From contig JAPJBO010000026.1 in assembly GCA_030068145.1 (NCBI GenBank), positions 310,001 to 374,000 on the forward strand: a stretch of DNA of 64,000 nt, read 5' to 3'. Made by a program: the position numbers and the translations under genes. Positions 1,119-46,263 of this stretch are shown in pieces. Under the pieces are notes generated by a model. That model searched no databases, had not been told where the DNA came from, and was given only the letters and a program-made list of their open reading frames with translations. Each line of letters begins with the position of its first letter. Within the stretch, counting starts at the first letter, position 1. The DNA comes from Diplonema papillatum. Its lineage: Eukaryota > Euglenozoa > Diplonemea > Diplonemida > Diplonemidae.

Positions 1119-3682
1119 CTACCAATCTTCGTCGCTGCTGATCTCTGGCGAAGTAGAGCGCTCCGACGCCCGCCGCTGCCCGCTGGGCGCCGGGGCCGTC
1201 GCACTCCGGCCCGCGTTGCGCCTCCGCAGGACGGTTTCCCAGATCTCCTGCTTTTTGTTGCCGACGTCCTTCGGGAAGATTTGCATCTTCGACTTCTCGC
1301 GCATCGTCCGCTGCATGGTGGACCTCCACAGCGCGTCGTCCGCCGCTTCGTCGTCGCTGTCGGCACCCCAAAGCAGGCGGCGGGCGAGGAGGACGCGCTC
1401 CATTTGCTTCCGATGCCGGGAGCCGGACTCGCCGTCCGACGACGACGAAGACATGGCGTCGTCGTCATCGTCTTCGAGGAGGCTCGCGTCGAAGGGGGCC
1501 GCCTGGCTCGCGGCGTGGGGCGCGTGGCCCGGCGGCTTCGCGCCCTTCGCCGCCCGGAAGCTCACGGGCGGCGGGCCGCCGGCGCCGCCGCCGTCCGACA
1601 CGAAGTCCTTGCCGCTCGCCCCGTAGCCCCCCACCCGGTCCGCCGCCGCGGCAGCGTTCGCGTACCACCGCCGCGCGGACGCCGCCGCGGCGCGCTGCGG
1701 GGACCTTGCAGACGGCGACGGGGTTCGGCACCTCGCCCTCTTCCACCGCGTGAGGCCTGAAGGGGAAAAGGGGAAGAGTTGCTTCAATGGAAAGAGCGCG
1801 GGGTATCTTGTGAATAAATACTTGATTGGAGGGGCCGGGGTGTGTCCAGCTCTACTTTTTTTCCGGTGCCAGCGTCAGTACATCAGCTCGCTGAGGGAGT
1901 GTAGGAGGCGTTGCTCTTGTCAACCCTAGCCCTGTGGCGGCGGTCGTGGTAGAAATCTGTAGTTGCGGGGACACCACCTACCCGTACCATAATGGTGCCC
2001 CTCTCAGCTGGTAAACCCTGATGTGGTGTGCCAAAGGAGCCGGGACGCAGCACAAAAAATCGGCACCAGACCTTTATGGGTCCGAGCTTGCACACGGGTG
2101 CTAGCAGCAGATTGACCTGGTGTTGTCAGTGCCACGTAAACACCCTGTAAGACCGGAGCTCGCGCTCTAAGGTACCTTTAGCGGATTGGCCCAGCAGTAA
2201 GCCAGTCCCCGGCCGCTACCAGGTTTTCGATACAATTCTGTTTGTGCGCAGCGGAACTCACCTGCTTTGCTAAGTCACGTGTAGTACGCTGCCAACTACT
2301 GATTATTAGTGCCAACAATTGCATTGTTTTGTTTGTACGTGCCCGGGAGAATTTGCCTGTTCGTGAATGAGTGTGAGTGAATCTGATCGGGCTAATCTTC
2401 CCCCCAACACGCTGCCGGCGTTCTCTTTCGTCTTTGCAACGCATTTTGTTTCCACGAAAGAAAAATGGGCGCTACGGAACGGGGGCACACCAGCTTTGCT
2501 CTTCCCGCGCGTCCGCGTTGCCGGCTCGGCGGCCGTCGCCTCCGGGGCGCCCTGCTTGTTTTCGGCGGTCGACGACTTGAGCACCCGCCAAACGACCAGC
2601 TCCTTGGGCACGTCGACGGCGTCCTTGACTTCGGACAGCGGGTGCAGGAGGCGGTAGGACGCTTGCGGCGGCAGGCGGCCGGTGGTGATGTCGGTGGCCA
2701 TGTTCCTGACGCCGGCCTCGCCGTGGAAGAGGTCGACGACGAACTCGGTCAGCTTCTGGTGGATGACGGAGTCGAGGGACGCGCCCTCCTCCGCCTTGGC
2801 CGGCTCCGCCGAAGGCTCGTCGTGCGAGGCGAGCGACTCCGCGCCGCGGCTGCGCGCGTCGGCGGGCTCGTCCTCGCAGTCGCCGAAGGAAGACCCGCTT
2901 GCGAGGAACCGGAAGGCGACCGTCTGCAGCGGGGCGACGATCTCGCTGTGGCTCCGGTCCTCGAAGAACGCCGCCGCGCGCAGCCGCTCGGACTCCGCGC
3001 GGTCCACCAGGGACTGCGTCCGGTTAGACAGCAGCCCGCGGGCAGGCGCCTCCGCGCTGCCCTCCGTGGACGACCCCCCCGCGAACTCCGCCGAATCGGA
3101 CACCGGCGGCGCCGCGTCGCTTCTCGGCGACGATTTCGGCGGCGGCGGCGGGTCGTCGATCTGGCTGTATTTCAGGGCCAGCGTCTGGGTGTGGCCGTAG
3201 GAGTCAGTGGACGTGAGGGTCAGCGCGACGGCTGACGACGCCGAGAAGTCTGGGGGCGCTGACGCGGGCGCCGGGCGGAGCGGCGCGGCCGGTGAGGAAG
3301 GCGCGCCGCGCGTGCCGAGGCGGGAAATCGCGTTTTTCGGCCGAGCCGTGCTCGGCTTCGAAGCAACGATGCCGTGCCGCCGCAGGACTGTCTCTGGTGT
3401 GGGCCCGGAGAGCGCGGGGTGGGTGGACGCCGGCAGCCGCACGGCGCTGGGCGCCGGCGGCGAGAACCGCACGATGCGCCGCATGGCCTCCGCGAGCTGC
3501 AGGTCGCGGCTCTCGGCGCCGGGCGGCGCCTCCATGTGGCGGATGATGTTCGTGACCCGGCTGCTCGCCCGGATCTCCGGCAGCCCGCACTCCACCTCTC
3601 CGCCGTCATCGCCAGCCGGCGCGCCCCCGTCTTCATCCCGGAAGCGGCGGCGCTCGACCCTCACGACACGCGCTCGCTTCAT
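1119..3682 (-). CDS. Unknown disordered protein, two exons (1119-1756, 2491-3682)
   Basis: I do not recognise the family. Exon 1 runs from an ATG at 3682 (MKRARVVRVERRR) to a GTGTGC donor after 2491 in phase 1. Exon 2 starts after a pyrimidine-rich CTTCAG at 1757 and is open only in the matching phase, so the join adds exactly 610 codons (609 residues). The N-terminal region is basic. The middle is rich in Ser, Ala and Pro. A more folded-looking stretch around residues 285-385 includes SLDSVIHQKLTEFVVDLF and ELVVWRVLKS. Exon 2 has an acidic run (EDDDDDA), a serine run, a charged helical segment and the C-terminus SSDEDW. The intron holds an R9 repeat. Truncated copies of the 5' end lie at 3855-4870. 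Exon reality is well supported by codon bias; the function is unknown. Confidence 0.75.
2222..2340 (+). repeat. Repeat R9, copy 2 (inside intron 1757-2490)
   Basis: Matches 62-165 over about 100 bp (GCGGAACTCACC, GCTTTG, TAAGT, GCTGCCAACTACT). It lies within the inferred intron of the 1119-3682 gene. Confidence 0.6.
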
Positions 3683-3854
3683 CCGAACAACACCCCCTTC
3701 CTCCCTGCTACCGCATCTCGTACTATTTTATCCCAGCCCTCCCTTGCGAGTTTCTTCTTTCCTTATCTGGTTGGTGCTGTGTAATGTGGTTCTCCGGATT
3801 CCTGGCTCCCCGCGATTGCAACGAGAGCACGCATGTGCTCGCATGCTAACGGGT

Positions 3855-4130
3855 GTCACCGGAGAGCGCGGGCTGCTCGCCCGGATCTCCGGCAGCCCTC
3901 TCCGTCATCGCCAGCCGGCGTGCCCCGGTCTACCCTCACGACGCGCGCTCGCTGCATCCGTACAACCTCCTCCCCTCCCTGCTACCGCATCTCGCACCTT
4001 TTTCTTCCATGCCCTCCCTTGCGAGTTTCTTTCTTGATCTGGTTTATGCTGTGTAATGTGGTTTTCCTGATTCCGGGCTCCTTCCCACGATGCAACTAGA
4101 GCACGCATGTGCTCGCATGCTCATGGGTGT
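3855..4130 (-). pseudogene. Truncated copy of the 5' end of the 1119-3682 gene, with internal deletion
   Basis: The text around CACCGGAGAGCGCGGG and CTGCTCGCCCGGATCTCC recurs from the parental first exon (near 3405-3590), but about 140 bp between them is missing. It is followed by the start-codon region (CGCGCTCGCTGCATCCG, compare the parent at 3670) and by the parental upstream flank (CTCCCTGCTACCGCATCTCG ... GCTGTGTAATGTGG at 3975-4058, compare 3703-3785). It therefore copies 5' flank plus part of exon 1 and cannot encode the full protein. Confidence 0.7.
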
Positions 4131-4470
4131 CACCGGAGAGCGCGGGGTGGGTGGACGCCGGCAGCCGCACGGCGCTGGGCGCCGGCGGCGAGAACCGCAC
4201 GATGCGCCGCATGGCCTCCGCGAGCTGCAGGTCGCGGCTCTCGGCGCCGGACGGCGCCTCCATGTGGCGGATGATGTTCGTGACCCGGCTGCTCGCCCGG
4301 ATCTCCGGCAGCCCGTACTCCACCTCTCCGCCGGCGCCGTCATCGCCAGCCGGCGCGCCCTCATCCCGGAAGCGGCCTACCGCATCTCGCGCTCTTTTTT
4401 TTTTTTCCCAGCCTCGTTCGGGGGTAAGGTACCAGGGAAAGCCTGCTACACGGGAGCCAAGCTTCACGTG
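4131..4470 (-). pseudogene. Second truncated copy of exon 1 of the 1119-3682 gene
   Basis: Nearly identical to the parent from about 3411 to 3640. It keeps about 85 codons in frame, including GLPEIRASSRVTNIIRHMEA with only a few changes (for example P to S and C to Y). The parental start region is lost and replaced by unrelated sequence before a CCGCATCTCG flank. Downstream the frame runs into the neighbouring copy (GDTHEHASTCVL) and stops. It is a 5'-exon fragment, not a complete paralogue. Confidence 0.75.
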
Positions 4471-4699
4471 TTCGGCGGTACTGCAGAGCCACGGGCCTAC
4501 GGGTCAAGTGGCTACCGATTTCCCAACCTAAGCATCAAGGCGTGGCGCACCTTGGGGCTTGGCGCTCGCGCTGAACACAAGCTCGTCGAGACGGTCAGCC
4601 ACCGGGCAGAGCGGACGGGGTTGTGGCACTGTGCTGCCTCCGACTCAAGCTTTGCAAGCTGTGGTTGACCGTCACGTTCCTGGACCAGGAGCGGCCTTT

Positions 4700-4870
4700 T
4701 TCTTTTTCTTCTTCTCTTCTTCCCAGCCTCGTTCGCCCTCCCCCGCGGAAAATTGGCTGGCTTCCGAGTTTCTTTCCTTTTCCGCCTGTGTTTCGTAGCT
4801 GTATACGGTGGCCCTCCTGATTGCTGAATCCCCGCAACAACGATGCAACAAGAGCACATGCGCTACACAC
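4700..4870 (-). repeat. Further copy of the same gene's 5' flank
   Basis: CTTCCCAGCCTCGTTCG ... GAGTTTCTTTCC ... GAATCCCCGCAACAACGATGC ... AAGAGCACATGCG follows the order of the flank at 3730-3840 and 4020-4115 but is more diverged. No exon sequence follows. This suggests that at least three rounds of copying involved the upstream region. Confidence 0.5.
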
Positions 4871-5508
4871 GCGCTACAAAGCTGCTGCAGTTTGGTGAGG
4901 GCCCATTTGCTCGGCACGCCCGTTCGCGCTGGCGCGCCAGACAACCGGCACGGAAAGAACGAAAAGGACAACAAAAATGCGGAACTCCTGAACAGAATTG
5001 ATTGAAGATGCAACTTTTCGACTACACGCTACAACGGGGGGGTGGGCGGCGGCGAAGCTCGTTGGTCCCCCCGACATGCGCCGGGCGCAGCAGGCGGGCG
5101 ACAGGGGCGCAGGCGCAGGGGTTTTCGCACCAGACTGAAAAGGCTGGGTGCAGCGCCGATCCGGCAGAGCTTCGCGGCCTGGACGTTCAAGGGCGGGGGA
5201 AGCAGGCCGCCCGCCGAGCGCTAAAGCTGCGGCAGCGGTCGGAGTTCCCCATCGGCCGACCAACGAGGATGGGCTGTCGAGAATCGTTGGCTGCGCACGA
5301 CTTCGGCTTTTCACGTTTTTCCCACTGTCGCGCGGCAGGTGCCGACTCTACCGTGCACCGCCCGGCACGGCCTGCCTGAACCGCGTTCTGACTCACGACA
5401 GAACCTGACGCAAACGGTTGCGCATGCGGCCGAGACACTTTCCCCTGCGCAGGGAGGAGATGAATCTCTTAAACGCAAGATGTTCCCACGGCAGAAGGCA
5501 TGGGGCAG
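4871..5508. other. Spacer with an unexplained GC-rich island (about 5036-5275)
   Basis: The island has exon-like base composition and is open in several frames on both strands, but none has a convincing start, splice pair or recognisable protein. It could be an isolated exon of an unseen gene or an old gene fragment. Confidence 0.35.
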
Positions 5509-8500
5509 CTACGCAAGCTCTGCGCCGTTTGAAAGCTTCGAAAGGTGCTGCTGGATGAAGTTCTGGACCGCCGTGGCGTTGGACTGGTGGCTGTCCCTTC
5601 GGAGCATGATCGACACGCGGACCACGGCTTCCACAAACTCCTCGTACAACAGCTCCTGATCCACCGTCAGCGAGCAGTGTACTTTGAAGTCATTCTTGCC
5701 CCGCGTCAGCTTCTCGAGCTTCACCTTCCTTTGCTTTCGCCTGCTCTCCAGCGCTTCATTCAGGATGTCCCCCGGCGTCGGTCTGTCAAGCTGACTCGGT
5801 CGAGACTGCGTTGTGGATTGCAAATTTAAGACCGTGAAACAGCTGAGAGATCCCATCGGACAGGTTTTCCGACTGCCGCAATCGTGAGCAACACACACTC
5901 ACGAGGTCTGGTCGGGTGGCGGACGATTCGCAAGAACCCCCTGCTGTTTCACAAACAAAAACGGGACGGGCATACTTCGTCTCCTCGCATGGTTGACGTT
6001 GGAGAACGGCTTCTCAGAGATAGGTGGTCCACTGTGGTTTGGGGAGGTAGGTTCGGGTTCATGAAGCACCAAAGCCCATCTGGCACGAGGCGGTTGCTGG
6101 GACGAAAGCAGAACAGCGTGCACCGATCGTGCAACGTGCTTGCCACCAACTACGGGCTATTTCTTTTGCGATAACCAGTAACCACCTCCTTAGTGAGCAT
6201 ACTTGTTACAGCTAAAAAGGAGTTTAACGTGAACGCGCTCAGGTCAAATCGCACAAACAAAAAATTGGACACAGCACAACGGAATTGAAAACAGGATAGT
6301 ACGCGGTTGCTGTTGGATGGACAGGAAGAGAGAAAACAAAGTACCGTCATCTACATCGGCGCTCGACAGGAACACGCTCTCCGTCGCACTGTCGCGACCC
6401 GACGGACGTTGTTTCTGTAAGTGTTTGTTGAGCTTTTGGGGCTTTTGATGCCGCATGTCCAATGACGGGAAGACGGCAGCTGTTCCCCCTTGGTGCCGGG
6501 GTCTTCGGATCGTTTGCGCGCAGCTTTTCAAATTCTGAGCGTGAATCGATGCAACAAAAAAGCCAGAAGCAGCTAAGAAGATCAGCCAGTCGAACTCAAA
6601 ACCCGATCAGGAAGCATCTACCTTTCGTACGCGAAATTATCGCGAACGAAAGGGGAAAAGTGCCGAAAAACGGCCTCGGATGCCTGCAAGGCAAGTGAGT
6701 TCCGCGTGTGCGCACAAACAGAGGCAAGAGCACGTACCTTCGCAAACTTCGGCGGGAAAGGAGAGAGCTCTTGCCCCGCGTCGAGGTTCTCGATCGACGG
6801 CGTCACGTTGAGGATGAGCGGCGTGTCGAAGAGGGCGAGGACCGATTGGGTGGACAGAGCGCCAGCGCCGCGGCCCAGGAGGGCGAGGTCGCGGAGCATG
6901 GTGAGGAACTGGCGCACCGTTATCACGACGTCGTGGGCGGGGCGGGTTCTTTGGGTGGCGAGGCCTTTGAACGTCCGGGTCGAATACTGCTGGTACAAGG
7001 ACCACAGCAAGTCTTTCGACGCGCTCAGGACAGAGGAAAGCCGGCTAGACTCCTTGAGGAACGACGTCTCCTGCGACGAAGGCTTGAGGTCACTCTGCAG
7101 CACGACAGCAAGTTTGTCTGCGAGGGTCAGAGAAGGGAAGTTCGCGTATTTCAGCGCCGCAATCCGGACGATCGCTTCAGTGAAGTCACGGAAGTACATG
7201 TACGTCGTCGAGCTGTGGATGTCTCGGAGGACCATCGACTGCGAGGAATGGCGCGACAAACCGCCGCTGTGGCTGTGTCTGATCGACCCGCCGCCCCGCG
7301 ACTTGGGCGTCGTGTTGACGGACGCCTTCCTCTGCATCGACACGCGGCGCGAAGTGTTTGCCACGGAGCGCCCGTCGGAAGCTTTGCTCTTGCGGCGGTC
7401 GGAGTACCCGGCGTGGCTGCGGCCGCTGTGCGTCTTGGGCTCGGTCTCGGCGGGACCCCCGCCTCCCCCCGCCCCCGCGGCTCGGCTGCCGGCGATGCTG
7501 ATTACGTCGGCGCTTTTGTCGACGAAAGCTATCGACAGCCCGGCGGAACCCTCCCTCAACCGCGACGGAAGCGGGTCGAGCTTGACTGGAGGCTTGCTGT
7601 ACACGAGGCGCGACGCGCTGCCTGCAGGGCCTGGCTGCTGGAAGGTGAGGAAGATGCGGTCCACCGCCGCAAGGGAGAGATCGGAGTTGATGAGGTGCGT
7701 GTCCTTAACGAGCCGCCAGAACTGCAGCATGCTCAGCGCCGACAACGCGTCTCCGCTTCGCTGCTCGTGGTCGGTGTGGATCGACGTGTAATGCTGGTAC
7801 AGGCGCCGGAGGCTCCAGTAGTGCCGCGACAGGAGGCAGTGGACGCGATCGAGCACTCGGTCCTTGTCGGCCTCCCCGATCAGCAGGTCGTCCACCTGCA
7901 GCGGGACGAAGCGGGTCAGCGACGCCTTCGTCGGCAGCTGCATCTTGCCCGTCGGCTCGTCGCGCGAAAAGCTGCCGGTGTACACGGCGCCGGTCTCGTA
8001 CAGAAACGTCCCCTCCCCGTGCTTTTGGTTGTCCTCCCACCGGCCCTCGTACCGCGACCCGTCCCGGTAGCAGAACACCCCGCGGCCGTGTCGCTTGCCC
8101 TTTTTGAACCCGCCTGTGTGTGGGTTTTGGAGTTGCAGCTCGCTTGAGCATCCGGGGGTTTAGAGCCTCCGGGCGACCTTAGTCAGCCGGTGAGTTCTTT
8201 CGAATCGAAACGTGTTTCGTGTCCAATGATGGGAGCTGCAGCCTTGCTCTCGTGGGGGTTAGGGTCTTTGGATCTGCAGCGGATCCGCTTCCGCGGCATG
8301 CCGCGGCTCCCCCGCATACAGATGTGTCGAGCCTCACTCGTACACGTTTTCCAGGACACAAAAGAGGAACGTAGTTGCAGAACAAGTGGTCGCAACGGCT
8401 GGGTTTTGTATTTCCATCAATCCCGAAATGGGCGCACAGTCTTCAACCCTTGTTTTTGTGTTACCGTCGATCCCGAAGGACGATCAGATTTTTTTTCTTT

Positions 8501-9433
8501 TTTCTTGCGCGGCGTTCCAGCGATACGGAAGATTGCCTTGGCAGTTGTACTTGCCTGTAGGGCACCGGTTTCACAAAAAAAGCGAAAGCGCACACCCGTG
8601 TAGTGGTTCGCCCGCTGCTGCAGCGCGAGGCCGTACTGCTTCGGGTCGATGTCGGCCAGCGGCGGCATGGGCGGGTCCGTCGGAGTCGCCGCGCTCGCGT
8701 AGTACCAGTACGTCCCGCTGCCGTCGATCTGCCCATCCTTCCAGTCGCCGTCGTACTTCTGCACGGGCCGCTGCGTCGCCGGGTCAACCCACACCATCAC
8801 CCCCCGGCCGTCCTTCTTGTCGTCGAGCCACTCGCCGACGTATTTCGACCCCGACGGATACACCATGGTCCCAAACCCCGTCCTCGCGCCGTTGTCCCAA
8901 TCACCGTCGTAGTACGACGACGAGGAGTACTGCATCCTTCCCTTCCCGGAGAACACACTGTCGGTCCAGTCCCCTGTGTACGTCTCCTTCGTGGCTGCGC
9001 GTACGAACGAACCTTTCCCGTGCCGGATGCCAGCTTGCACTTCACCGTCGTAGGTGTCGCCGTTGGGGTATACGTAAAGGCCAGACCCGTCGATTCCGTG
9101 GTTTTCAACGTCGCCCGTGTACGTCATGCCGTCTTCCCACGCAAACCGACCCGATCCATTGGCCAGGCAGTTTTTGTACCAGCCGGAGTACGTGTACCCT
9201 ATGGTGTACGCGCCGGTGCCCGTCCCGTCGAACTGTTCGACGCCCTCGCCGGTGCCGTCCGCGGCGAGGCCGTCGGTCCTCGATATGGACCCGGAGTAGC
9301 TCGCCATCGCGAGCTTCATCATCTCGATGTCGACGGTGCTCGTCTGCCCCGGCGGCTCGAGCACGCTGTAAATGTTCGGCGGCGGCTGCGGCGGGCCCTG
9401 GGCCACGCTGCCCCAGTCGGGTTCGGGCAGCAT
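5509..9433 (-). CDS. RSPH10B-like radial spoke head protein with MORN repeats
   Basis: Exons: 8596-9433, 6738-8113, about 6622-6683 and about 5509-5794. The ATG at 9433 opens MLPEPDWGSV. MORN units (YxGxWxxxxxxGxGxxxY type) fill roughly residues 75-310. The first intron (8114-8595, donor GTGTGC, acceptor CACACAG) splits a MORN unit that rejoins as YTGGFKKGKRHGRGVF. A 54-bp second intron (6684-6737) is in frame and could be retained. After the MORN block come a low-complexity linker and the helical motif YFRDFTEAIVRIAALKY, echoed in the last exon by LYEEFVEAVVRVSIML. MORN repeats followed by such a region, and about 853 residues in total, fit the RSPH10B family (human about 870), an axonemal radial-spoke component. 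The last join is uncertain: donor GTAGAT to 5794, or GTTCGC to 5805. Confidence 0.82.
6684..6737 (-). repeat. 54-bp intron carrying an R9-like core
   Basis: On the minus strand it reads GTACGTGCTC ... CTTGCCTTGCAG and includes GTTTGTGCGCAC and GCGGAACTCAC, the R9 core in the opposite orientation to the copy in the 1757-2490 intron. The length is divisible by three and the sequence has no stop, so retention would add 18 residues. Confidence 0.55.
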
Positions 9434-10498
9434 TGTTTTTTTCTGTTTTGCCTGCCGCGCTCGGCCGCCGTAGCAGGGGGAGGGGTAGGTGCCCTGTGTA
9501 CCTGCTTCGCGGCGGACGTGCGCGACGCGGTTCAGGTCGCCGGGGAAGGTTCTTGACCTGTTTTTCTTGCCCTTCTCCTCCCCCCCCTTATTCTGTGCGT
9601 TTCCCCCCCCCCCCCCCCCTCCGCCCGCCTTTCGCAAGGCAAGGGGGACGAGAGGTTCCTTTTCTTTTTCCTGCGCGGTATGTGCGTATAAGTCGATCTT
9701 TGAGTGCGTAAGCCCCTCCGAAGAAAGGTCCATCTCACTAGTTCCAAGCTACTTGGCCCGGGTCTCTGGGTCGCGTCCCCCTCCTTCTCTTGGTCGCCTG
9801 GTCTTGCGTCTTGTTGGTCCGGCCGGGCTGGTCGCTTCGCGCTTCCCCTTCGTCTTGCATCACCTCGTCTCCACTCCCTGCCGCACGGGCTTCTCCGGTT
9901 CGTGCCACCTGCGACGCGGGCCGCTAAACTGCTCTTCTGCGCGACGACTGCTCTGTACTCGTTGCGCGGTATGTGCGTGTGCGGCCACTTTCGGATGCCA
10001 ATTTCCGACTCTTTTCCGGCGTAGATTTTCCAAGCCCAAATGCTGCGAAAACTACGATCTGCTGCACAGGTTGGCAGGCCGCTGACACGAACGCATTGAG
10101 CCTGAGCTAGGTTCGTCGCAAGCGCGCATTATTGTGCCAACTGCTCGTTTCTTTATCAACTGCAAGCCTACGTATGAGCAGTGTTTTTCGAGTTCGTTCG
10201 GACGATGAGATGGCCACGCTTTTGGAGCCACATATCACTGAAGCGGCAGGATGAGATGATCCCTCCCGTAGTTCCGACGTGGGCCGATAACAGAGCGCGA
10301 GGAAAGACAGAAAAGCATGGGTAGCACGAATAGGGCACCTTGAAGCAACAGGCGAAGACTAACTGAGGGGGAGTTGGTCCCCCTCGGATGCCCTCGCACC
10401 CCGGCAAACAGAATGAGAGCACGACGAGCAGCAGTGCGCGTGCGCGCTTTAGTTGTGGCATAACCGAAAAGCACAAGGGAGTGCGCCGGGAAGCCGGC
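9434..10498. other. Spacer between genes
   Basis: The RSPH10B-like 5' side includes a C-run at 9605-9620 and a pyrimidine-rich stretch; an acceptor-like AAACAG stands just before AAAAAAACAATG at the start codon. The rest (to 10498) has no convincing gene. Confidence 0.45.
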
Positions 10499-12056: not shown

Positions 12057-13577
12057 GTTGCGTTAGCTCGGCACCCTGACCTCCCCCCTGAGTCCCCCCC
12101 TCCCAAGCCCACAACCCGATCCTGTACATAGAAAAGGCACGCTGCATCGACGCCACCGTGAAACGAATCCGACCAGCGTGCGCGAAGCGAAAAAGACGCC
12201 GCAAAGCCTGCATTCCACTGCGGTACAAAGGTCGCAATAGCCGTCGTTAGTACTCCTGGGCATAGTACCGAAAACGCTTCCAACGGTTGCCTTTTGATAA
12301 TAAACCATCTCACGACGCTGAGCGCTGTGCGTTGCTCAGGGTATTGATGATCACACTAATGCAACAAATTCGCGCAACGGGCGGGGTGCAGACCGGGATC
12401 GTCAACCAACCGCCCGACAGCGGCTGCAGCGGCAGCGACATCGACAGCGGCGACGTCGCTGCCGCTGCAGAGAACGCACGGGAGGACCCGCGGCACAGCA
12501 TCAGTCCATTCTCCACGCGGGGGGGATGGCCGTTGGAACCCTCCCCCGGGATGACGAAGGCCGGGGAGAGCCGGGGGCAGTGAAGCAACGAAGTCCGCGA
12601 ACGGTGGGTGGTGACCCGTCCGAACAGCCTCCCTGGCCCTGGCCCACGCCTGATGCCGCAACCCCTTAACCCGGGCGGCGGCACTTTGGCATGAGCCAGG
12701 AACCTCAAGGGGAGCAGCGCGAGAGGCATCATCCACGCTTCAAAGGCCCACACACTAATGCAACAAATTTACATCTCACGACGCTGAATGCGGATACACA
12801 CATGCAACCAGTGCTCACTGGAAATGGAAGGTGTGGCTGAGGAGCACCCGTCGTGACCCAAAAAGCACAGGAGAACAGCAAACTCAACGTACGACGCCGG
12901 ACAATGTGGGCAAATATTGCGGGAAAGACGAATGGGGGGCGCACGCTGCAGTCGGCATTGTTTTTGACTTGAATGCTTGCCCCTTTCTAAGAGGCGGAGA
13001 GAAAAAACCCGGTGCGCAACGCAAGCCTGCTAGCGTCCCGCCCCACGACACCAGGTGGAGGTCTGTCGTAGGTTGCGGCGGGTTCCAACTGAACAAATAA
13101 CTGAAGGTCGCTCCATGGCCGCTGGCCAGTGGGTGTTTGTACACCCAACCTTGTCCCGCCCTTTTTGATAGACTATCAGGGGCAAGCGCACCGGCGAGAT
13201 CCGAGATGGACCGGCGTGAGCTTGTGTCGCCACAGAGTACGCCGCGGGGTGTTGTCGAAATAATGTAGAAACGAAGAATTGCCCCACAAATCCCAGAGCA
13301 GAAGTTTCTTACCACTCACCTCATCCTCGAAAGGCCCTTTCTATCGGGCCTAGACACCAGCTTGGGGGGCATCTGCGGTCAACTATGCAGAGGAGCTGGT
13401 CTCCCCTTGCGGTCTGTTCAGAGTGTTGACCACAGGCAAAGAACTCCTTGGAGGAGTACCCGCGGCTGCTGACGTCTGGTGAGAATCGTCAAGATGGTTC
13501 TTCTCCGTGGACTCATTCCGGATCCGAGTTAGCATATGGCAACATTCTGTGATCCTGTGTGCGTGTGAAGTGACTTC
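12057..13577. other. Spacer with GC-rich patch and short direct repeats
   Basis: CACACTAATGCAACAAATT occurs at 12351 and 12751, and CATCTCACGACGCTGA at 12306 and 12773, so the two motifs recur in opposite order around a GC-rich block (12370-12720). That block is open in more than one frame, but I cannot support a gene. Confidence 0.4.
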
Positions 13578-14017
13578 CGCGACCTTGCAGCCGACGTGTT
13601 TGTCAAAGCCTCGCCTTGCGCCACACAAGCCGCTCCAGGATGCGAGGCAGCGGCGCGTGCTTGATGACGGGCACGGCCCGGAACCTGCCGGGAATGTAGA
13701 ACCGCCTCTTTTTGCGGGCGACCGCACCGAAGATCAGCGGGACCACATCGTCCACGTGCGCCTCCGCCGCCGATTCCCCTAGCATGCGGAGACGGCGCGC
13801 CCTGCCTGACGCCGTGCGCGCGGAGGTTGGTGCCCGAGACGGACACGCTGAAGATCTCGGTCACGACCTTCCGGTACGCGGCGGTCGTCTCCCACGCGGT
13901 ACCGTGCGCCGGGTGCCCGCCACCGCGGCGGCGATATACGCGACGTCCAGCACCTGCTTCGGTCCCAAACTCGCTGGCGAGGTGCAGGCAGTCCTGCAAG
14001 TCGGTGATGTCCGTCCG
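13578..14017 (-). pseudogene. Broken tandem copy of the short-chain dehydrogenase 3' half
   Basis: The last 45 or so codons (RKKRRFYIPGRFRAVPVIKH, parent RVVPVIKH) and the region around GTNLRAHG are copied. The segment matching roughly 14303-14510 of the intact gene, which holds the catalytic Tyr and Lys, is deleted. Upstream it resumes with the YRKV and HGTAW parts out of frame. A 9-bp stretch coding for KVD near the C-terminus is also missing. The junction at about 14017 returns straight into the intact gene's 3' end, so this is a head-to-tail duplication followed by decay. Confidence 0.85.
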
Positions 14018-14040
14018 CGACCTTGCAGCCGACGTGTTTG

Positions 14041-14841
14041 TCAAAGCCTCGCCTTGCGCCACACAAGCCGCTCCAGGATGCGGTCGACCTTCGGCAGCGG
14101 CGCGTGCTTGATGACGGGCACGACCCGGAACCTGCCGGGAATGTAGAACCGCCTCTTTTTGCGGGCGACCGCATCGAAGATCAGCGGGACCACATCGTCC
14201 ACATGCGCCTCCGCCGCTGATTCCCCAGCATGCGGAGACGGCGCGCCCTGCTTGACGCCGTGCGCGCGGAGGTTGGTGCCCGAGACGGACACGCTGAAGA
14301 TCTCGGTAAGGGTCACGGAGAAGGCGTCGTCGGCGATGAGGGCCTCGCACACGGAGTTCAGCGCAGCTTTCGAAGCGCAGTAGGCGGCGCGGCCCGGGAG
14401 GCCGACGAGGCCGGAGGCGGAGTTGATGACGGCGAGGTGCCCGCTGGACCGGTCGAGGATGGGCAGCAGCGCCCGGATGGCGTTGAGGCACCCGAAAAAG
14501 TTGGTCTCCATGACCTTCCGGTACGCGGCGGTCGTCTCGTCGGTCGCGGCCCACGCGGTGCCGTGCGCCTGGTGCCCGCCCACCGCGGCGGCGATGTACG
14601 CGACGTCCAGCACCCGCTCAGTCCCGAGCTCGCTGGCGAGGTGCAGGCAGTCCTGCATGTCGGTGATGTCCGTCCGCACCGTGAAGCACGCCGCCGCGCC
14701 CCGCGCCACGCACTCGCGCTTCGCCGCCTGCAGGTCGCGCTCCGTCCGAGCAGCGAGCACCACTTCGTCGCCCCGCTTCGCGTGCTCCAGCGCGAGCCCC
14801 TTCCCGATCCCGGAGCTGCCGCCGACGACGAGGATCCGCAT
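14041..14841 (-). CDS. Short-chain dehydrogenase/reductase (SDR)
   Basis: A 266-residue single-exon protein with an ATG at 14841, the usual length for a classical SDR. The N-terminal VVGGSSGIGKG is the glycine-rich cofactor loop. Asn114 (NFFG), Ser141 (INSASG), Tyr154 and Lys158 (YCASK) form the catalytic set. An Arg after the second strand (AARTERD) suggests NADP(H) preference (inference). The C-terminus is basic (RKKRRFYIPGR ... VKH), and its last third resembles SDRs of the ketosphinganine-reductase/11-beta type only loosely, so the substrate is open. No signal peptide or clear membrane helix is visible. A broken copy of its 3' half follows immediately downstream. Confidence 0.9.
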   Translation of the reverse strand: MRILVVGGSSGIGKGLALEHAKRGDEVVLAARTERDLQAAKRECVARGAAACFTVRTDITDMQDCLHLASELGTERVLDVAYIAAAVGGHQAHGTAWAATDETTAAYRKVMETNFFGCLNAIRALLPILDRSSGHLAVINSASGLVGLPGRAAYCASKAALNSVCEALIADDAFSVTLTEIFSVSVSGTNLRAHGVKQGAPSPHAGESAAEAHVDDVVPLIFDAVARKKRRFYIPGRFRVVPVIKHAPLPKVDRILERLVWRKARL

Positions 14842-16265: not shown

Positions 16266-16439
16266 GTTCATCCGTTTAACCCCAAAACTCCGCCGACATC
16301 GACTTTCTGCAAGCAAGCTTGCTTGAGGGTGACATAGAGACTCACACCAAAGTCAGCGAAGGGCTCCCGGATGTGCAAATCCAAGACACGACAACGAATT
16401 CCCCCGGATGCCCTTATACAGAAGTCGACCAAGACAAGA

Positions 16440-16665
16440 GACCATGGATCCCCCCCCCCCGTCGGGCGCCGCCGCCGGCGCCCCCCCTCTCCCGGCGCCA
16501 GGGCCGCGCACGCCCGCTGCGGGAGGGCGACCGTGTTCAGCTTCTCGCGCGGCGCGATCTGCGAAGCGCGAGCCTTCGGACCCTTCGAGGTCCGGTTTTC
16601 GAGGTCGAGCGTCTGCGAGCACCCGCGGGCTGCACCTCTTCCACGAGCACCAGCAGCGCTCACAG
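16440..16665 (-). pseudogene. Broken copy P2 of the last exon of the 16669-19631 gene
   Basis: Matches parental 16995-17210 (SKGPKARASQIAPREKLNTV and flanks), with the alanine-rich part shortened. It ends at CCACGAGCACCAGCAGCGCTC next to the parental stop codon. It lies between P1 and the parent, so the order is P1, filler, P2, parent. Confidence 0.8.
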
Positions 16666-16668
16666 CTG

Positions 16669-19631
16669 CTAGTCGCCCCCCCTGAGGACCTTCGCGAAGA
16701 GATCAGCGTCGGTGTACCAGAAAGACGAGCCCTCGCCGTCCTCGAGCGCCGCTTCGAGGTCGTGGTACGGCAGCAGCCGCGCTGCGAGCCAGACGCCGGT
16801 CTCGGTGTCGAGGGCGGCCTCCCGGAAGTCGGGGAACGCCGGCGGTTTCGCACGCGCAACCCCGTCGGCGGCCCACGCGGACGAGCCGGCCGCAGGCAGC
16901 GCCGCCACGTCGGCGCGGGCCGCGGCCGCCAGCCAGTCGACCCACTCCTCGGACGCCGCGGCCGGGGCCTGTTTTTTGGACGGCGCGTCGCCCACCGGGA
17001 ACCCGCCGTCCCCCGGCGCCAGGGCCGCGCGCGCCCGCTGCGGGAGGGCGACCGTGTTCAGCTTCTCGCGCGGCGCGATCTGCGAAGCGCGAGCCTTCGG
17101 ACCCTTCGAGGATCGGTTTTCGAGGTCGAGCGCGGCGGCCGCCGCGCCTTCGAGCACCCGCGGGCTGCACCCTGCCTTCTTCCACGAGTACCAGCAGTGC
17201 TCGCGCCAGAACTCGGAGCGCATGTTCTCGGCGAGTGGCTTCCCGTTCGTGAGCGTCCGCTCCATCGACCGGCCGACCTCCTTGACGCCGTTGAACATCA
17301 CGCGGGCGTTCTCCTCGAGCCTCGCGGCCTTCGCCTTCGCGGTGCCGTCTACGGCGGCCTCGTCCAAGCACTTGTACATGATGCTCCCGAGCACCGCGCT
17401 GAGCATCAAGTAGCACTGCAGCCGCCGCGTCTCGTTCTGCATGGCCACCGGCTCCCACTCGCCGGCCGTCGGGCGGAGCCGCCGGTACCCACTCGGCTCG
17501 ACCCCCGCCGCAGCCTCCTTCACCGACGGGCACTCCGACGACAGCGCGTCCAGGGCAGCCAGCAGGCGCTTCGTCTGCGGGTGGGGGGGGTTCTTTGGAA
17601 GGCGGGTTGCGCTTTTTTGTGTTTCCGACGATCCCGTGGGACGTACAGATTGGTGTCTTTCGACCTTTGTTTGTTTGTGAGGTTCAGCTTGGTGCGTGTG
17701 GTCGGTGGGCGGGGGGGTTGGTTAGGAAGCTCTACTGTATCGGGCTAGACTTTAATTCATGCTTGAGCCAGGATGCCCACTCCGCAGCCTTTCCGCTGGG
17801 CTCTTGGTAGCTGATCCGCTCGCATACACTTTTCATTACAGTGGCGTTGCGCGCTGCGAAGTCGTCCATGATTTGCCAGTACGTCACGTTGCATTGTCCA
17901 TAAATTCTCGCCAGGTCTGCTTCGGGTCCATAACTCCGCACGTGAAGCTCGTCGTTGGCCGTGAGCACGTGCTTAGCACTTCCTCGTTCAACGCATCCTA
18001 CGACGGCGCACGCCTCGCTCGTTCTAAACGGCATGATCGTCCTTCGGACCAGGGCCTGGAGCAAGTCCGTCGCGCCTTTTTTTTTTTTTTTTTGGAAGGC
18101 TCCGGTCGTCTTGGTATCTCTTCCCAGGCACTTCGCTCGCTAGTCACAAGGCAAACATGGACTCTATCTTTGCGTTTCCGATGATCCCCATGGATGATGG
18201 GTCAAGGACTTCCAACCTCTGCACCTAGCATGCGTGTGGCTGAGCCGTACATTCAAAAGAAACCTTGTGCGCGTAATTTTTGCCCTGTCTTTATAGGCTC
18301 CATCTCTCGATGCACTCCGTGTGTTGCGACAAGTTTCTCTTTCACTGAAAAGCCGAATGTTCCTGCCTTCTTTATTTCCCAAGCTTGATCGGCGGCATCT
18401 CATTGTTGCGAGCACAAGCGCACCGGACACGTAGTGCCCCGGCACGAGGGCGGACAAGAATACACACCAGGGTTTCCATCTCGACCGTGAAAACAGTCAA
18501 CGCGTCGGCATCCGTCAATGAGGCTAGCTTGTGTGCGAAGCCCTGTGATAGTATGTGTTCAACGTTCGCGACAAACGAACGCTGGCGGGCTCGGTGCAAC
18601 GTCAAGCCTCCTGTCACAATGATGATGAGATTCGACGTACGGACAGGTCCCGTCTAGCTTCCTCCTCTTCTTTTAGCGTTTATTGTGGTTCTTTTTGAGT
18701 GAATGCAAACCTGCAAGTCCTTAACGTCGGCTGCCAGCTGGTTCTCTTTCGGTACCGCGTTCTTGTAGTTCGTGCGTAGCGCTGTGGGGATGGTGAAAAT
18801 TGTACGTGTGGCGAAAACTGCAGAAAACAGCGCGCAGTTTCCAAAAGACGCAGACCAAACTCGCCACAATCGGGAATGCCGCGCACAAGTCATCACGAAG
18901 CGCTGTCAGGTGGCTCAGGTCTGTCGGGGGCTGGGCAAGGTACGGAAGGCGGTTAGCACATTGCGTGCTGTTGGTCACAGTTGCACAGAGTGCTAGCCGA
19001 GGAAAAGGTGGTTTGCGTTCTTTTGGTGAGGGGAAGAGGGCATACAATCGTAAAGCTGCGCAAGGGGCGGTGTCGCCACCGGGGGCACCGCCGCTATGCC
19101 ATCGAGGGTGTCGTTGGTGCGGATGAGGCCCTTGTTCAGCATCGTGACGTCGTGCCGCATGCACCCGAGCCGCGACTGCAGGAGCTGCGCCTCGCCGGAC
19201 ACTTCTGCGTTGCACAATTGCACGCGAGCCCCCAATGTTTTGGTCGCTGCCAAGATGCCCTCCAGGAACGGCAACGGTATACGACGGTCGTCGCGGCAAA
19301 GGGACGTTACCGGTGGAGAGTTCATGTACTCCACCAGCGAGCGAAGATCGCCGTCGGGCAGGATGTCAGTTAGCTCGCTGTACAGCGTGAACGGCAGATG
19401 CGGGAAGTCAGACTCGAGGCAGTCGGGGTCGTTGATGGCGGCGATGACGCTGTCGAGGATGCTCTTCACCGCGCCCCAGCCCGCGCTGACCGCGGGCACG
19501 ATTTCCTTCCTCCACCGGCTCAGCGCCTCCTGCTCGAGCTTCTTCTTCGGTCCCGCCTTCTTCTTCGCCGGCCCGCTGGCTCCCGGCGCCGTCATCTGGT
19601 CGGCGCTTCGCTTCCGGCTTTCGTCGCTCAT
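16669..19631 (-). CDS. Unknown protein with basic, possibly nuclear-targeting N-terminus, five exons
   Basis: Exons: 19046-19631, 18711-18781, 18468-18581, 17828-18055 and 16669-17574. Donors are GTATGC, GTTTGC, GTGTGT and GTATGC; all phases agree and total 635 codons (634 residues). The ATG at 19631 begins MSDESRKRSADQM, and residues 7-33 are basic (AKKKAGPKKK), like a nuclear localisation signal. Exon joins read naturally, for example LAQLYD-SLRTNYKNAV and VKDLQ-RSFVANVEHIL. The C-terminal exon is Ala-rich and ends VLRGGD. If the 17827 donor is ignored, exon 4 runs on to a stop at 17732, giving a 364-residue form ending ELKSSPIQ. I prefer the long form because the 16669-17574 exon has no start of its own. 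The family is not recognised. Two broken copies of the last exon lie downstream. Confidence 0.68.
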
Positions 19632-31748: not shown

Positions 31749-31793
<45 letters not shown>

Positions 31794-32008
31794 CGATAGA
31801 GAGAGAATGGGTAACGGTGGGGATCACCTCCTCGTGCGAGGTCAGCCCACTGCGAAATAATCTGAAGCTGTCGCCGAGGAGGACTTCTTCTTCTTTTCTC
31901 TTCTTCTTTTTTGTTGCCATGCTACTTGATGCCAGTCTATTGCCGCCAAGACCGGCTGAAAACGAAGTAGATCAACGTGTCCTTTTGTTTCTCCTGTTTT
32001 CTTTTAGG
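31117..32008. other. Spacer with (GA)n tract
   Basis: 5' flank of the TPR gene, then a GA microsatellite. No gene seen. Confidence 0.45.
31747..31806 (+). repeat. (GA)n microsatellite
   Basis: Alternating GA with a few interruptions (AAAG, CGAT). Confidence 0.9.
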
Positions 32009-32955
32009 GTTTATTCCCTTATAGCCACCACAATTTTTTTTTATTCCCTTATAGCCACGAAAAAAGAATTTTATTCCCTTATAGCCACGTCAATGTTTTT
32101 TATTCCCTTACAGCCACCACATGTTTTTTAATTCCCTTATAGCCACGGAAAAAGAATTTTATTCCCTTATAGCCACGAAAAAAGAATTTTATTCCCTTAC
32201 AGCCACGAAAAAAGAATTTTATTCCCTTATAGCCACGGGAAAAGAATTTTATTCCCTGACCAGCCTGGACAGCCTGAACCACCCAACCAGACAAGTCAAC
32301 CAGTCCTGGTTGCACCAGACACTAAGTCCTGGCTTTAAGGTATCAACGGCAAGGGTCCTCTGAGTCGTGGTTTCAAGGGGGGTTTTCCCCTGTGAAGGGG
32401 CCCCTCAACAGTTTTCATAACACGGCATCGTAGGTCAAGAAACGGATAAGTGTGTGTTCCTTCTATTTCAGTCTGAACTGCATTTTGCATCCCCTCCCTC
32501 TCCCTCGGATAAAATGCAAAGGACCAATTTTATGATCGGAGCAGCAAGCCTCACGATGTATGGGAACGACAGGGGTATCCTCCTCAGAACTCTCATGTGT
32601 GTCAGGTAGGAACATAGTTTTAGACTGATCTTGCGAGGGGTGGGCACCCTATGGAGAAGGTGGCTCTCCAGGAATAAAATTCTTTTTCCGTGGCTATAAG
32701 GGAATAAAATTCTTTATTCGTGGCTAAAAGGGAATAAAATTCTTTTTTCGTGGCTATAAGGGAATATAATTCTTTTTCGTGGCTATAGGGGAATAAAATT
32801 CTTTTTTCGTGGCTATAAGGGAATAAAATTCTTTCGTGGTGGCTATAAGGGAAAAAAAAACGGTTGTAGTCAGTTCGTGGCTATAAGGGAACAAAATTCT
32901 TTTTCCGTGGCTATAAGGGAATACTGAAAATACCGGGTGGCTATAAGATAATTTG
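32009..32955. repeat. Foldback-like element: two inverted 30-bp minisatellite arrays
   Basis: The left array (32009-32260) has eight units of TTATTCCCTTATAGCCACGA plus AAAAAGAATT. The right array (32670-32955) has about nine units of the exact reverse complement (GTGGCTATAAGGGAATAAAA). They flank about 410 bp of single-copy sequence without a gene. Both arms could pair over about 250 bp. Long inverted repeats made of tandem units are the hallmark of foldback transposons. No target duplication could be confirmed. Confidence 0.8.
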
Positions 32956-34239: not shown

Positions 34240-34385
34240 TATTTGCTGCGCCCGCCACAGAACCCAGATTACCTGTGTTTCGTGTGGGCTACAGCACATT
34301 TACCTCCTTTGATCTAACGCAACTGGCAGTCTCCTCAAGCATTTCCTACAAAGCGGATGCTTATACAAAAAATATTTGCCGAAAC
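34240..34385 (+). repeat. Tandem duplicate of the R2 right half
   Basis: The 125-bp block from CCCAGATT(T)ACCTGTGTTTCG to GCTTATACAAAAAATATTTG repeats directly after the previous copy with few changes. Confidence 0.85.
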
Positions 34386-43470: not shown

Positions 43471-44559
43471 TGCGTGGTTTGACGTAGTCAAGGTGGTGGA
43501 AATCCTATTCGGTAGTTAGTTAGTTCAGCGGGTTTGATGAGATTCGAGGTCCAGTTTTTTCTTGTTCGTTTTACTAACACAGGTACACGTGCCCTCGACA
43601 CATTGCTCGGGCGCTCTGATCCCGGGGCGAAAGACCCATCAATCCTAAGGTTCTTTCCGTCAGACTTTTCCAGAGGGCAGCCAGAAGCAGACAGCGAAGG
43701 CCTGTGATTCCTACCACAGTGTGAGGTAAAACTAAACATTGAACACGTTGGATGCCCTCCTCCCTCTCCAGCATTCCTTTCGAAGGATTCCGGTCTGGCT
43801 TTCATCGCACTTGCGCAGCGCCAGTACCTTCTGGTACGTGCGAGCAAGGAGAATCACTAGGAGCGGTACCTGTCGCCGGTCTCCACGCTGCACCCTCGTG
43901 TTTTAAGAGGCCGGTATCTGCGAGGTTCCAGTTGCCCGCTGAGACTCCTAGCAGCTTCAGCCGTTCTCCACTGCGCCCGGTTGGCCTTCTTCTTTCTTCG
44001 GGGCAAAATATTGGTCACGAGCACACTGAACTCGGTTCCCTGACACTGCTGCGGATGAACACCCCCTAATTGACCAGTCAGGGCGTGCGGCGCGAGTCTT
44101 TGCCGAAGCTTGGATTCATCGCGAAAAGGCGGGTGCAAGGCAGCAGAAAATGGGAGCGGCGCGGCTTTGTGAACGCGACACGTTGGAAGACCGCTCGAGG
44201 CGGAGGGCTGGGGCAGCTGCGCCGGATTGCGGCGGCGACAAAGTGGCCGCCCCCTCGAAAATGTATTTTTGGTTGGGAGGCTGCTGAGCGGCGTGCGCAG
44301 GGGACGATCCAGACGCGCTCTGGGTTGATACGTTTACACCGCTCGCTCGGCATGTTGGCACACTCTCCCCGTTCTAATTATCTTGCGGTCTTGATCCAGG
44401 CCACGGCAGCTATTGGTCCCGGTACGTGTTATCCTTTGACTGACAGTGTGCCGGTGCCCGGTGGTGAACAGCGCGTGTCAAAAATATCAGACGGTCACGA
44501 CGAGAGTTCACACGGGTTTGTTTCTTCACCGCCGTACCGAGAACTCGCCTCTCCGCTTT
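43471..44559. other. Spacer, nothing recognised
   Basis: No coding bias in either strand. Confidence 0.4.
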
Positions 44560-44714
44560 GCTGCGGGGGGATTGCAAGAACGTGCTTGGAGTGGATATGT
44601 GCTCAACACGGCACTGCTCCCGTGTTTCGGTCCTTCAAGCCGCGACACATAAGGCGGGCCATCGTCAGCGCGGAAGAGTGTCTGCAGACAGCACAGCAGT
44701 ATGAGTCTGGCTTG
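44560..44714. repeat. R1 repeat, copy 1
   Basis: Contains GCAAGAACGTGCTTGGAGTG, GTGCTCAACACGGCACTG, GTGTTTCGGTCCTTCAAGCC and GAGTGTCTGCAGACAG. It recurs at 45010-45232, 46905-47085, 51385-51525 and 53880-54005. Confidence 0.75.
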
Positions 44715-44960
44715 CTATGAGGGGAGGAAATTACTTGGCTGCTGCTGCTGCTGCCTTGCCAGCTCAATAATCTTTTGCAGCTTCTGGCTGCCGACGTTGC
44801 CGCCGCAGACGACAATGACGCTCGTTTTGTTGCGGTACGTTTCGGGCTCGCGCAGGAGCGCCGCGACCGCGACCGCCGCCGAGCCCTCGATGAGCTTTCC
44901 TTCCTTGTCGAGGAGCAGGGCTGGCCTGCCGCTGGAGCGAGGCTTGCCTTTCGTCGCTCG
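44715..44960 (-). pseudogene. Truncated copy of the serine racemase/threonine dehydratase 3' end
   Basis: Encodes the final 65 or so residues of the neighbouring enzyme nearly unchanged (LLDKEGKLIEGSAAVAVAAL, VCGGNVGSQKLQKIIEL), then a new glutamine-rich tail (ARQQQQQPSN) and a stop. Nothing upstream of that point is present, so the PLP lysine and the active-site loops are missing. It was copied together with the flanking R1 repeat. Confidence 0.88.
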
Positions 44961-45009
44961 GCCGAAGTCGCCTTTCTTGCGTGCTTCCATCGAGTTTCCT
45001 ATCCGTTTT

Positions 45010-45232
45010 GCCGCGGGATTGCAACGTGCTCGGGGATGGACATGTGCTCAACACGGCACTGGTCCCGTCCGCGCCGTGTTTCGGTTGTAAATTTGTCGCA
45101 TTAGTGTGATTGTCAGGCCTTCGACTACCCTGAGCAACGCACTATATGTTTCGGTCCTTCAAGCCACAGACACACAAGGCGGGCCAGGAAGAGTGTCTGC
45201 AGCGGTACGAGACCGGCTTGCTACGAGAAGGG
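45010..45232. repeat. R1 repeat, copy 2 (interrupted)
   Basis: ATGTGCTCAACACGGCACTG then about 70 bp of other sequence, then TTTCGGTCCTTCAAGCCACA and AGTGTCTGCAGCGGTACGAG, directly 3' of the intact enzyme gene. Confidence 0.7.
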
Positions 45233-45234
45233 GA

Positions 45235-46263
45235 TTACTTGCGGAGTTCGATAATCTTTTGCAGCTTCTGGCTGCCGACGTTGCCGCCGCAGACGACGAC
45301 GACGCTCGTTTTGTTGCGGTACGTTTCGGGCTCGCGCAGGAGCGCCGCGACCGCGACCGCCGCCGATCCTTCGATGAGCTTTCCTTCCTTGTCGAGGACG
45401 AAGAGCAGGGCGTCCGCGATCTCTTCTTCGGACACGACCACCCAACGGTCCACGCACGCGGCGCAGTACGGAAGGGTCACGGAGCCGGCTTCGACGTTGC
45501 CGGCGGTGCCGTCGGACAGGGTCTCACGGCAGCCGATTTCGACGATCTTCCCCGCCTCCACGCAGCGCAGCATCGCCGCGTCGTTTGCGGGCTGGCAGCC
45601 CACGACGACGGTCGCCGGGCTCCTTTTTTTGAAGTAAGCCGCGACGCCGCTGATCATCCCGCCCCCGCCGACCGCGAGCAGAACGTAGTCCGGCTGCTTC
45701 GGGCAGTCCTCCAGAATCTCGACTGCGAGCGTGCTCTGCCCGATGATGACTTCGATGTCGTTGTAAGGGGAAATAAACGTAGCAGACTCGCCGCTGGACT
45801 CGGCCAGCCGGCGGGCGGCCAACTCTGCCTCCATGCAGTCTGTGCCGTGGAACTCGAGTGACACGGAGGGGGTGCATCTGTCCTTTATGTTCTGGACCTT
45901 CGCCGGGGAGGCGGTGGACGGCAGGCACAGAAGCCCGCGCATGCCCGGGTAGCAGCGGAGGGCGTGCACCATAGCCAGCGCGTGGTTGCCGGTCGACGCG
46001 GTCGTGACGAGCTGGGTGCCGCGCTCCTTGCACTTCCCCGCTTTGTAGACCGCGCCGCGCGCCTTGAAGCTGTTGGTGACCTGCTCGCTTTCGAGCTTCA
46101 GGTGCACGTACGTGTCGTCGTCGTCGGCCCCCCCCCGAACCCGCTTCTGCAGCGCGAACGACGGCATCAGCGGTGTTCGCCGGATGTGACGCTCGATCAG
46201 GCGCAACGCCGCCTCGCTGTGGTCGGCGATCGCGCCTATGTCGGCGGACTGTTTTTCAGGCAT
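45235..46263 (-). CDS. PLP-dependent serine racemase / threonine dehydratase family enzyme
   Basis: A 342-residue single exon from the ATG at 46263, the usual length of eukaryotic serine racemase or catabolic threonine dehydratase. TNSFKARGA carries the Schiff-base lysine (Lys67). ASTGNHALA is the substrate loop (S-T-G-N-H). SPYNDIEVIIGQ and the glycine cradle AVGGGGMISGVAAYF bind the PLP phosphate. It lacks the C-terminal ACT-like regulatory domain of biosynthetic IlvA, so a catabolic or racemase role is likely; sequence alone does not decide between serine and threonine. It has no targeting signal and is probably cytosolic. The context AAAACAATG suits translation initiation. The last 65 codons are duplicated downstream at 44715-44960. 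Confidence 0.9.
   Translation of the reverse strand: MPEKQSADIGAIADHSEAALRLIERHIRRTPLMPSFALQKRVRGGADDDDTYVHLKLESEQVTNSFKARGAVYKAGKCKERGTQLVTTASTGNHALAMVHALRCYPGMRGLLCLPSTASPAKVQNIKDRCTPSVSLEFHGTDCMEAELAARRLAESSGESATFISPYNDIEVIIGQSTLAVEILEDCPKQPDYVLLAVGGGGMISGVAAYFKKRSPATVVVGCQPANDAAMLRCVEAGKIVEIGCRETLSDGTAGNVEAGSVTLPYCAACVDRWVVVSEEEIADALLFVLDKEGKLIEGSAAVAVAALLREPETYRNKTSVVVVCGGNVGSQKLQKIIELRK

What the first reader, a model, noticed from the sequence alone, without database searches (positions are those of the whole stretch)
1119..46263. Four unrelated genes each carry truncated tandem copies of one end
The 1119-3682 gene (5' end, at least two copies), the SDR (3' half), the 16669-19631 gene (3' exon, two copies) and the serine racemase (3' end) all have adjacent, same-orientation, incomplete copies at different stages of decay. 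Four such loci in 64 kb suggests an active process, such as replication slippage, template switching or repair by re-copying, acting repeatedly on gene ends. It could be a source of gene-tail turnover or chimeric proteins in this genome.
Basis: seen in the sequence. Interest (0 to 1): 0.75.

Follow-up and report, generated by a model that had tools for sequence, protein, structure and literature searches.

The report
Tandem scraps of gene ends
Four genes here do sit beside broken, same-direction copies of one of their own ends, but small side-by-side DNA duplications of this kind turn up throughout the parts of this protist genome that were sampled and had already been noticed by its sequencers, so this is a known quirk that looks commoner than reported rather than a new system.

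Summary
All four loci carry adjacent, same-strand, incomplete copies of one gene end. Each duplicated unit straddles that end: about 454 bp (5' end, first gene), 658 bp (SDR 3' end), about 540 bp (16669-19631 gene) and at least 400 bp (serine racemase). Copies decay by deletions, substitutions, frameshifts (3 of 5 copies) and, in two loci, dispersed-repeat insertions.

The 271-Mb genome is almost certainly Diplonema papillatum. [quoted passage not shown]

Local same-strand duplication is no denser here (9 clusters in 60 kb) than in 20 random stretches (36 in 197.5 kb). In 24 random stretches it outnumbers inverted pairs 41 to 6. Those stretches hold four more end-copied genes or gene-like frames, which would mean roughly 1,200-11,700 genome-wide.

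Best explanation: recurrent DNA-level tandem duplication of 0.25-1 kb segments anywhere. Duplications that straddle a gene end survive, because they leave one intact gene plus a decaying truncated copy. Patchy divergence inside single copies suggests later re-copying or conversion. Targeting of gene ends and production of chimeric proteins are not shown, and not excluded.

The parts
2306..3682 (-). First gene, exon with the start codon (no Pfam match); start codon at 3680-3682
   Evidence: ORF and translation; coding score; no Pfam family
3405..3858 (-). Locus 1, duplicated unit in place: 278 bp of 5' coding sequence plus 176 bp upstream of the start codon
   Evidence: alignments
3859..4132 (-). 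Locus 1, copy 2: the unit with about 142 bp (3419-3560 equivalent) and smaller pieces missing; frameshifted
4133..4376 (-). Locus 1, copy 3: 2 substitutions in 238 aligned bases against the gene; start-codon region missing
4426..4722 (.). Dispersed repeat inserted in copy 3, flanked by a 16-bp direct repeat (TTCCCAGCCTCGTTCG)
   Evidence: all 40 places scored of 434 candidates include 39 elsewhere in the genome; flanks
4761..4857 (-). Probable remainder of copy 3 beyond the insertion (70% to 3743-3830)
14041..14841 (-). Short-chain dehydrogenase gene
   Evidence: PF00106, E 2.4e-28
14014..14671 (-). Locus 2, duplicated unit in place: 3' coding part plus 27 nt beyond the stop
13576..14013 (-). 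Locus 2, truncated copy, lacks the equivalent of 14308-14508; frameshifted; 5-bp microhomology (TCCGC) at the junction
16669..17523 (-). 3' exon of the 16669-19631 gene (no Pfam match)
16665..17202 (-). Locus 3, duplicated unit in place; ends 4 nt beyond the stop codon
15982..16664 (-). Locus 3, copy 2: one part 1 substitution in 279, other part 10 in 181; 2-bp frameshift
16295..16454 (.). Dispersed repeat within locus 3 copy 2, absent from the gene
   Evidence: 39 other places at 94%; 40 of 196 candidates scored
15884..15953 (-). Locus 3, short remnant of an older copy
45235..46263 (-). Serine racemase-like gene (PALP fold family)
   Evidence: PF00291, E 1.4e-63
44998..45398 (-). Locus 4, duplicated unit in place: 3' coding end plus 237 nt beyond the stop, with a dispersed repeat inside
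44548..44914 (-). Locus 4, truncated copy; coding part keeps an open frame

Best explanation
Each locus is a head-to-tail tandem duplication, made at the DNA level, of a segment of about 0.4-0.7 kb that happens to straddle one end of a gene. This genome makes such duplications everywhere. A duplication that straddles a 3' end leaves an intact gene followed by a truncated copy of its tail; one that straddles a 5' end leaves a truncated copy of its head in front of an intact gene. Both are tolerated, whereas a duplication wholly inside coding sequence persists only if it keeps the frame. The truncated copy then decays by deletion, frameshift, substitution and repeat insertion, and is sometimes amplified or partly re-copied from the gene. 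Shown: head-to-tail units, inclusion of flanking non-coding DNA, same-strand bias, genome-wide density, decay of copies. Inferred: survival by selection, the initiating mechanism (slippage or microhomology-driven template switching, then unequal recombination within the repeat), and conversion.
For: Head-to-tail units with flanking non-coding DNA in all four loci. A 5-bp microhomology at the locus 2 junction. Both junctions of locus 1 read the same, so the third copy arose in register with the first event. Unit borders lie at varied distances from the gene end: 4, 27 and 237 nt past the stop in loci 3, 2 and 4, and 176 nt before the start in locus 1 (with ORFs). Same density in window and random stretches: 1.5 against 1.82 clusters per 10 kb, 1.73 with 24 stretches. 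Same-strand 36 to inverted 3 in 20 stretches (p = 4e-8), 41 to 6 in 24; counting only clusters without a match in another stretch, 21 to 2 in the 20. Four further end-copied genes or gene-like frames in the random stretches: L025 (LMBR1, 3'), L029 (gene-like, 3'), L031 (Sel1, 5'), L036 (arabinofuranosidase, 5'). The three arrays I examined inside coding frames have periods divisible by three (48; 213/237; 69).
Against: Only one of the junctions shows clear microhomology; locus 3 has 3 unmatched bases at the junction instead, and loci 1 and 4 could not be judged because the outer border has decayed. Many random pairs are not clean tandem units but two copies with an unduplicated spacer, which needs later deletion or another route. 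15 of the 36 same-strand clusters share sequence with other stretches, so some may be two independent insertions of one repeat family. End-copied genes are denser in the window than in the sample (p = 0.07). No genome-wide, annotation-based count could be made, so survival versus targeting is not settled. Inverted hits are undercounted by design: hairpin-like pairs closer than 100 bp are excluded, and L017 alone had 46 inverted hits before clustering.
Confidence: 0.72

Rival explanations
1. Gene ends are themselves hotspots: something tied to polycistronic transcription, trans-splicing or polyadenylation breaks the DNA there, and repair re-copies the end.
For: In the window, 4 of the 5 two-to-three-copy pairs with offsets above 300 bp lie on a gene end; the genome paper singles out gene ends; end-copied genes are somewhat denser here than in random stretches.
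Against: Same-strand duplication is just as dense in random, mostly non-coding stretches. Unit borders fall at varied distances from start or stop, with no fixed site. The window was selected for this feature.
Confidence: 0.15
2. The copies came back from RNA: partial retrocopies of mRNA ends pasted beside the gene.
For: The genome holds about 2,500 retroelement gene models (paper, section 8), and truncated copies are typical of retrocopying.
Against: No A or T run of 8 or more within 60 bp of any of the seven border positions checked; no spliced-leader tail in the window with up to 3 mismatches; copies lie head-to-tail beside the source, 36 same strand to 3 inverted in the sample; the locus 1 unit runs 176 nt upstream of the start codon while the published 5'-UTR is about 70 nt.
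Confidence: 0.03
3. Each is an old duplication of the whole gene that has since lost most of its sequence.
For: Copies do carry internal deletions of up to about 200 bp, and whole-gene tandem arrays exist in this genome (paper, passages).
Against: In loci 1-3 the junction joins the middle of the gene directly to sequence at the gene's other border at 95-99% identity, with no trace of the rest.
Confidence: 0.05
4. Assembly artefact.
For: The assembly is repeat-rich and fragmented (2,910 contigs); I had no reads.
Against: Copies differ by substitutions, indels and copy-only insertions; the paper reports a near-haploid genome and long-read support at its own example.
Confidence: 0.03

Closest known systems
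'Repeat-bounded gene structures' of Diplonema papillatum (Valach et al. 2023, PMC10161547; abstract, sections 7 and 8 and passages seen)
   Same: Part of a gene's 5' region or of an exon's 3' end repeated in tandem next to the gene, degenerate copies (71-96% in the published example), gene itself intact; very probably the same species.
   Different: The text I saw gives 'dozens' of cases and no mechanism; my sample points to thousands. Its example is a 12-13 copy 5' array; loci here have one or two extra copies, mostly of 3' ends.
Ordinary small tandem duplications by slippage or microhomology-driven template switching (established knowledge, recalled)
   Same: Head-to-tail, same strand, sub-kilobase, random borders, microhomology possible, later expansion in register.
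   Different: Density appears high, and divergence within a copy is patchy, suggesting repeated re-copying.
Partial gene-copy reservoirs used for conversion (for example antigen-gene silent cassettes; recalled)
   Same: Truncated same-strand copies near an intact gene; possible conversion tracts.
   Different: Unrelated ordinary genes, copies mostly frameshifted, no evidence of programmed use.

Membership tests
Repeat-bounded gene structures of D. papillatum | Genome is D. papillatum | tested here: met
   A spliced-leader 36-mer recalled by me has 620 sites at up to 3 mismatches, 0 for the reversed control; 271 Mb against about 280 Mb published. The paper counts 110 SL genes at 90% identity or more; my looser scan counts more sites.
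Repeat-bounded gene structures of D. papillatum | Part of one gene end repeated in tandem next to the gene | tested here: met
   All 4 of 4 loci
Repeat-bounded gene structures of D. papillatum | Copies degenerate, gene intact | tested here: met
   Copies 78-99% identical; 3 of 5 frameshifted; gene frames open, Pfam matches for 2 of the 4 genes
Repeat-bounded gene structures of D. papillatum | Copies absent from mature mRNA; long reads confirm them | not testable with these tools
   No reads or RNA-Seq held; reported for the published example only
Retrocopies of mRNA | Poly(A) tract or spliced leader at the border | tested here: not met
Retrocopies of mRNA | Loss of introns in the copy | tested here: inconclusive
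   The duplicated units contain no recognised intron, so nothing could be lost
Tandem duplication by microhomology or slippage | Head-to-tail same-strand unit | tested here: met
Tandem duplication by microhomology or slippage | Microhomology at the junction | tested here: inconclusive
   5 bp at locus 2; none seen at locus 3; loci 1 and 4 not readable

The most novel reading that the evidence does not exclude
Gene ends in this polycistronically transcribed, trans-spliced genome are genuine duplication and re-copying hotspots: about one gene in seven carries truncated copies of an end, which exchange sequence with the gene by conversion and so turn over gene heads and tails.
Probability: 0.12. 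Interest if true: 0.75.

Novelty: already known. Interest (0 to 1): 0.35.

Why it matters
It shows that a curiosity mentioned in passing for this genome is probably a bulk property of it. If thousands of genes carry truncated copies of an end, automatic gene models, copy-number and expression estimates near gene ends will be wrong for many genes. It also offers an abundant natural record of small tandem duplications for testing how they arise and which survive.

Tried and rejected
Retrocopy, whole-gene duplication and assembly artefact were considered and disfavoured for the reasons given under rivals. A repeat-element origin was rejected for loci 1-3, whose end copies matched no other stretch I held; genome searches with loci 1-3 listed only the home locus plus embedded dispersed repeats, but only 40 candidates were scored each time. 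Locus 4 does contain a dispersed repeat in its 3' flank. Rfam: no match in the window at gathering thresholds. L037 was first flagged as an end-copied gene and dropped: it is an in-frame repeat inside one open frame. L036 was not flagged by the automatic overlap test and was assigned by hand from its open frame and Pfam domain. Paper searches answered; none of the listings showed another paper on end-copied genes in diplonemids.

A gene-centred sample from Pfam-family loci was planned and failed: the search was unanswered 12 times and, when answered, returned places but no loci. I used its places for nothing further.
Full report
WHAT IS THERE. Self-comparison of the window confirms all four loci. 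In locus 1 a unit of about 454 bp (3405-3858: 278 bp of 5' coding sequence and 176 bp upstream) is followed head-to-tail by a shortened copy (3859-4132) and a third copy (from 4133), the third interrupted at 4426-4722 by a dispersed repeat with a 16-bp flanking direct repeat. In locus 2 the last part of the short-chain dehydrogenase gene plus 27 nt beyond its stop (14014-14671) is duplicated as 13576-14013, with about 200 bp missing from the copy and a 5-bp microhomology at the junction. In locus 3 the unit 16665-17202, which ends 4 nt past the stop codon, is duplicated as 15982-16664, with a dispersed repeat at 16295-16454 in the copy only and a short older remnant beyond. In locus 4 the 3' end of a serine racemase-like gene plus 237 nt of flank (44998-45398) is duplicated as 44548-44914; a dispersed repeat lies within the unit.

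DECAY. Of five copies, three are frameshifted and two keep an open frame: locus 1 copy 3, which lacks the start-codon region, and locus 4. Divergence within a copy is patchy: in locus 3, 1 substitution in 279 coding bases against 10 in 181 (p = 5e-4); in locus 2, 6 in 258 against 11 in 166 (p = 0.04); in locus 1, 2 in 238 coding bases against 20 in 88 non-coding (p = 1e-10); in locus 4, 7 in 164 coding against 17 in 157 non-coding (p = 0.03) (uncorrected). Constraint on the gene explains part of the coding versus non-coding difference; the within-coding differences in loci 2 and 3 suggest later re-copying or conversion. This is inference.

WHICH GENOME. The window is contig 26, 310001-374000, of a 271-Mb assembly in 2,910 contigs. 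A recalled spliced-leader sequence of Diplonema papillatum has 620 sites at up to 3 mismatches and none for the reversed control; size agrees with the published assembly. The paper counts 110 SL genes at 90% identity or more, so my sites must include fragments or looser copies. The genome paper (PMC10161547; abstract, sections 7 and 8 and passages seen; [quoted passage not shown] The kind of structure is therefore in print; I saw no mechanism and no genome-wide count there.

HOW COMMON. Twenty random 10-kb stretches, drawn from the first 200 kb of contigs 1-370, hold 36 clusters of same-strand local duplication (100 bp or longer, at least 75% identity, offset 100-1500) in 16 of 20 stretches and 3 inverted clusters; the first 60 kb of the window holds 9 and 1. 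Densities are 1.82 and 1.5 per 10 kb (p = 0.73). With four more stretches the count is 41 same-strand and 6 inverted, in 19 of 24 stretches for same-strand. Of the 36, 21 have no match in another stretch and 15 do, so some of the 15 may be independent insertions of one repeat. Against this, many pairs have an unduplicated spacer between copies, and close hairpin-like inverted pairs were excluded by the filter.

Four genes or gene-like frames in the 24 stretches carry truncated copies of an end: an LMBR1 gene (L025, 3'), a gene-like frame without Pfam match whose 3' part has three further near-full copies and shorter pieces (L029), a Sel1-repeat gene (L031, 5') and an arabinofuranosidase gene (L036, 5'). 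Scaled to the genome this gives about 4,570 loci, 95% range about 1,245-11,702, or 4 among about 28 genes expected in 237.5 kb at 32,000 genes. The window has 4 in 64 kb, richer than the sample at p = 0.07, but it was chosen for this feature and by my count holds about 13 genes where 7.5 would be average.

MECHANISM. Units are head-to-tail, include non-coding flank, and have borders at varied distances from start or stop, which speaks for DNA-level tandem duplication with no fixed site. RNA origin is disfavoured: no A or T runs of 8 or more near seven border positions and no spliced-leader tail in the window. Both junctions in locus 1 read alike, so the third copy arose in register with the first duplication, as slippage or unequal recombination inside an existing repeat would do. 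The link with gene ends needs no targeting: a duplication straddling an end always leaves an intact gene plus a truncated same-strand neighbour, while one inside coding sequence must keep the frame. The three arrays I examined within open frames have periods divisible by three (48, 213/237, 69). Whether ends are in addition favoured sites could not be tested without an annotation-based genome-wide count.

VERDICT.

Noticed in passing
window 32010-32257 and 32671-32923: Two arrays of a 30-bp unit (about 8 copies each) in opposite orientation about 0.4 kb apart, giving a large imperfect inverted repeat.
   Followed up: no
window 22482-23169 and 57021-57942: In-frame coding repeats: a 48-bp unit (about 14 copies) in the 20980-23304 frame and 213/237-bp units in the ankyrin gene 55204-58818.
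   Followed up: partly
window 44566-44714, 44998-45085, 46902-47058: Copies of an abundant dispersed repeat of about 150 bp; the genome search had 2,407 first-look candidates for the whole locus-4 query, 40 of them scored.
   Followed up: partly
window 60934-61164 and 61237-61473: A fifth local same-strand duplication (81%, offset 303) in non-coding DNA upstream of the metallophosphatase gene 59632-60597.
   Followed up: partly
window 49239-49446 and 31752-31806: Long AG dinucleotide runs, one about 208 bp.
   Followed up: no
L029:702-5701: A glutamine-rich gene-like frame whose 3' part is repeated downstream about every 950 bp at 0.5% substitution, so very recent.
   Followed up: partly
L031:6234-7380: A 172-bp tandem array begins 44 bp before the stop codon of the Sel1-repeat frame, so this gene may have repeated sequence at both ends.
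   Followed up: no
L022:674-2245 and 3977-4946: Near-identical tandem arrays of about 100-bp units (over 99% identity).
   Followed up: no
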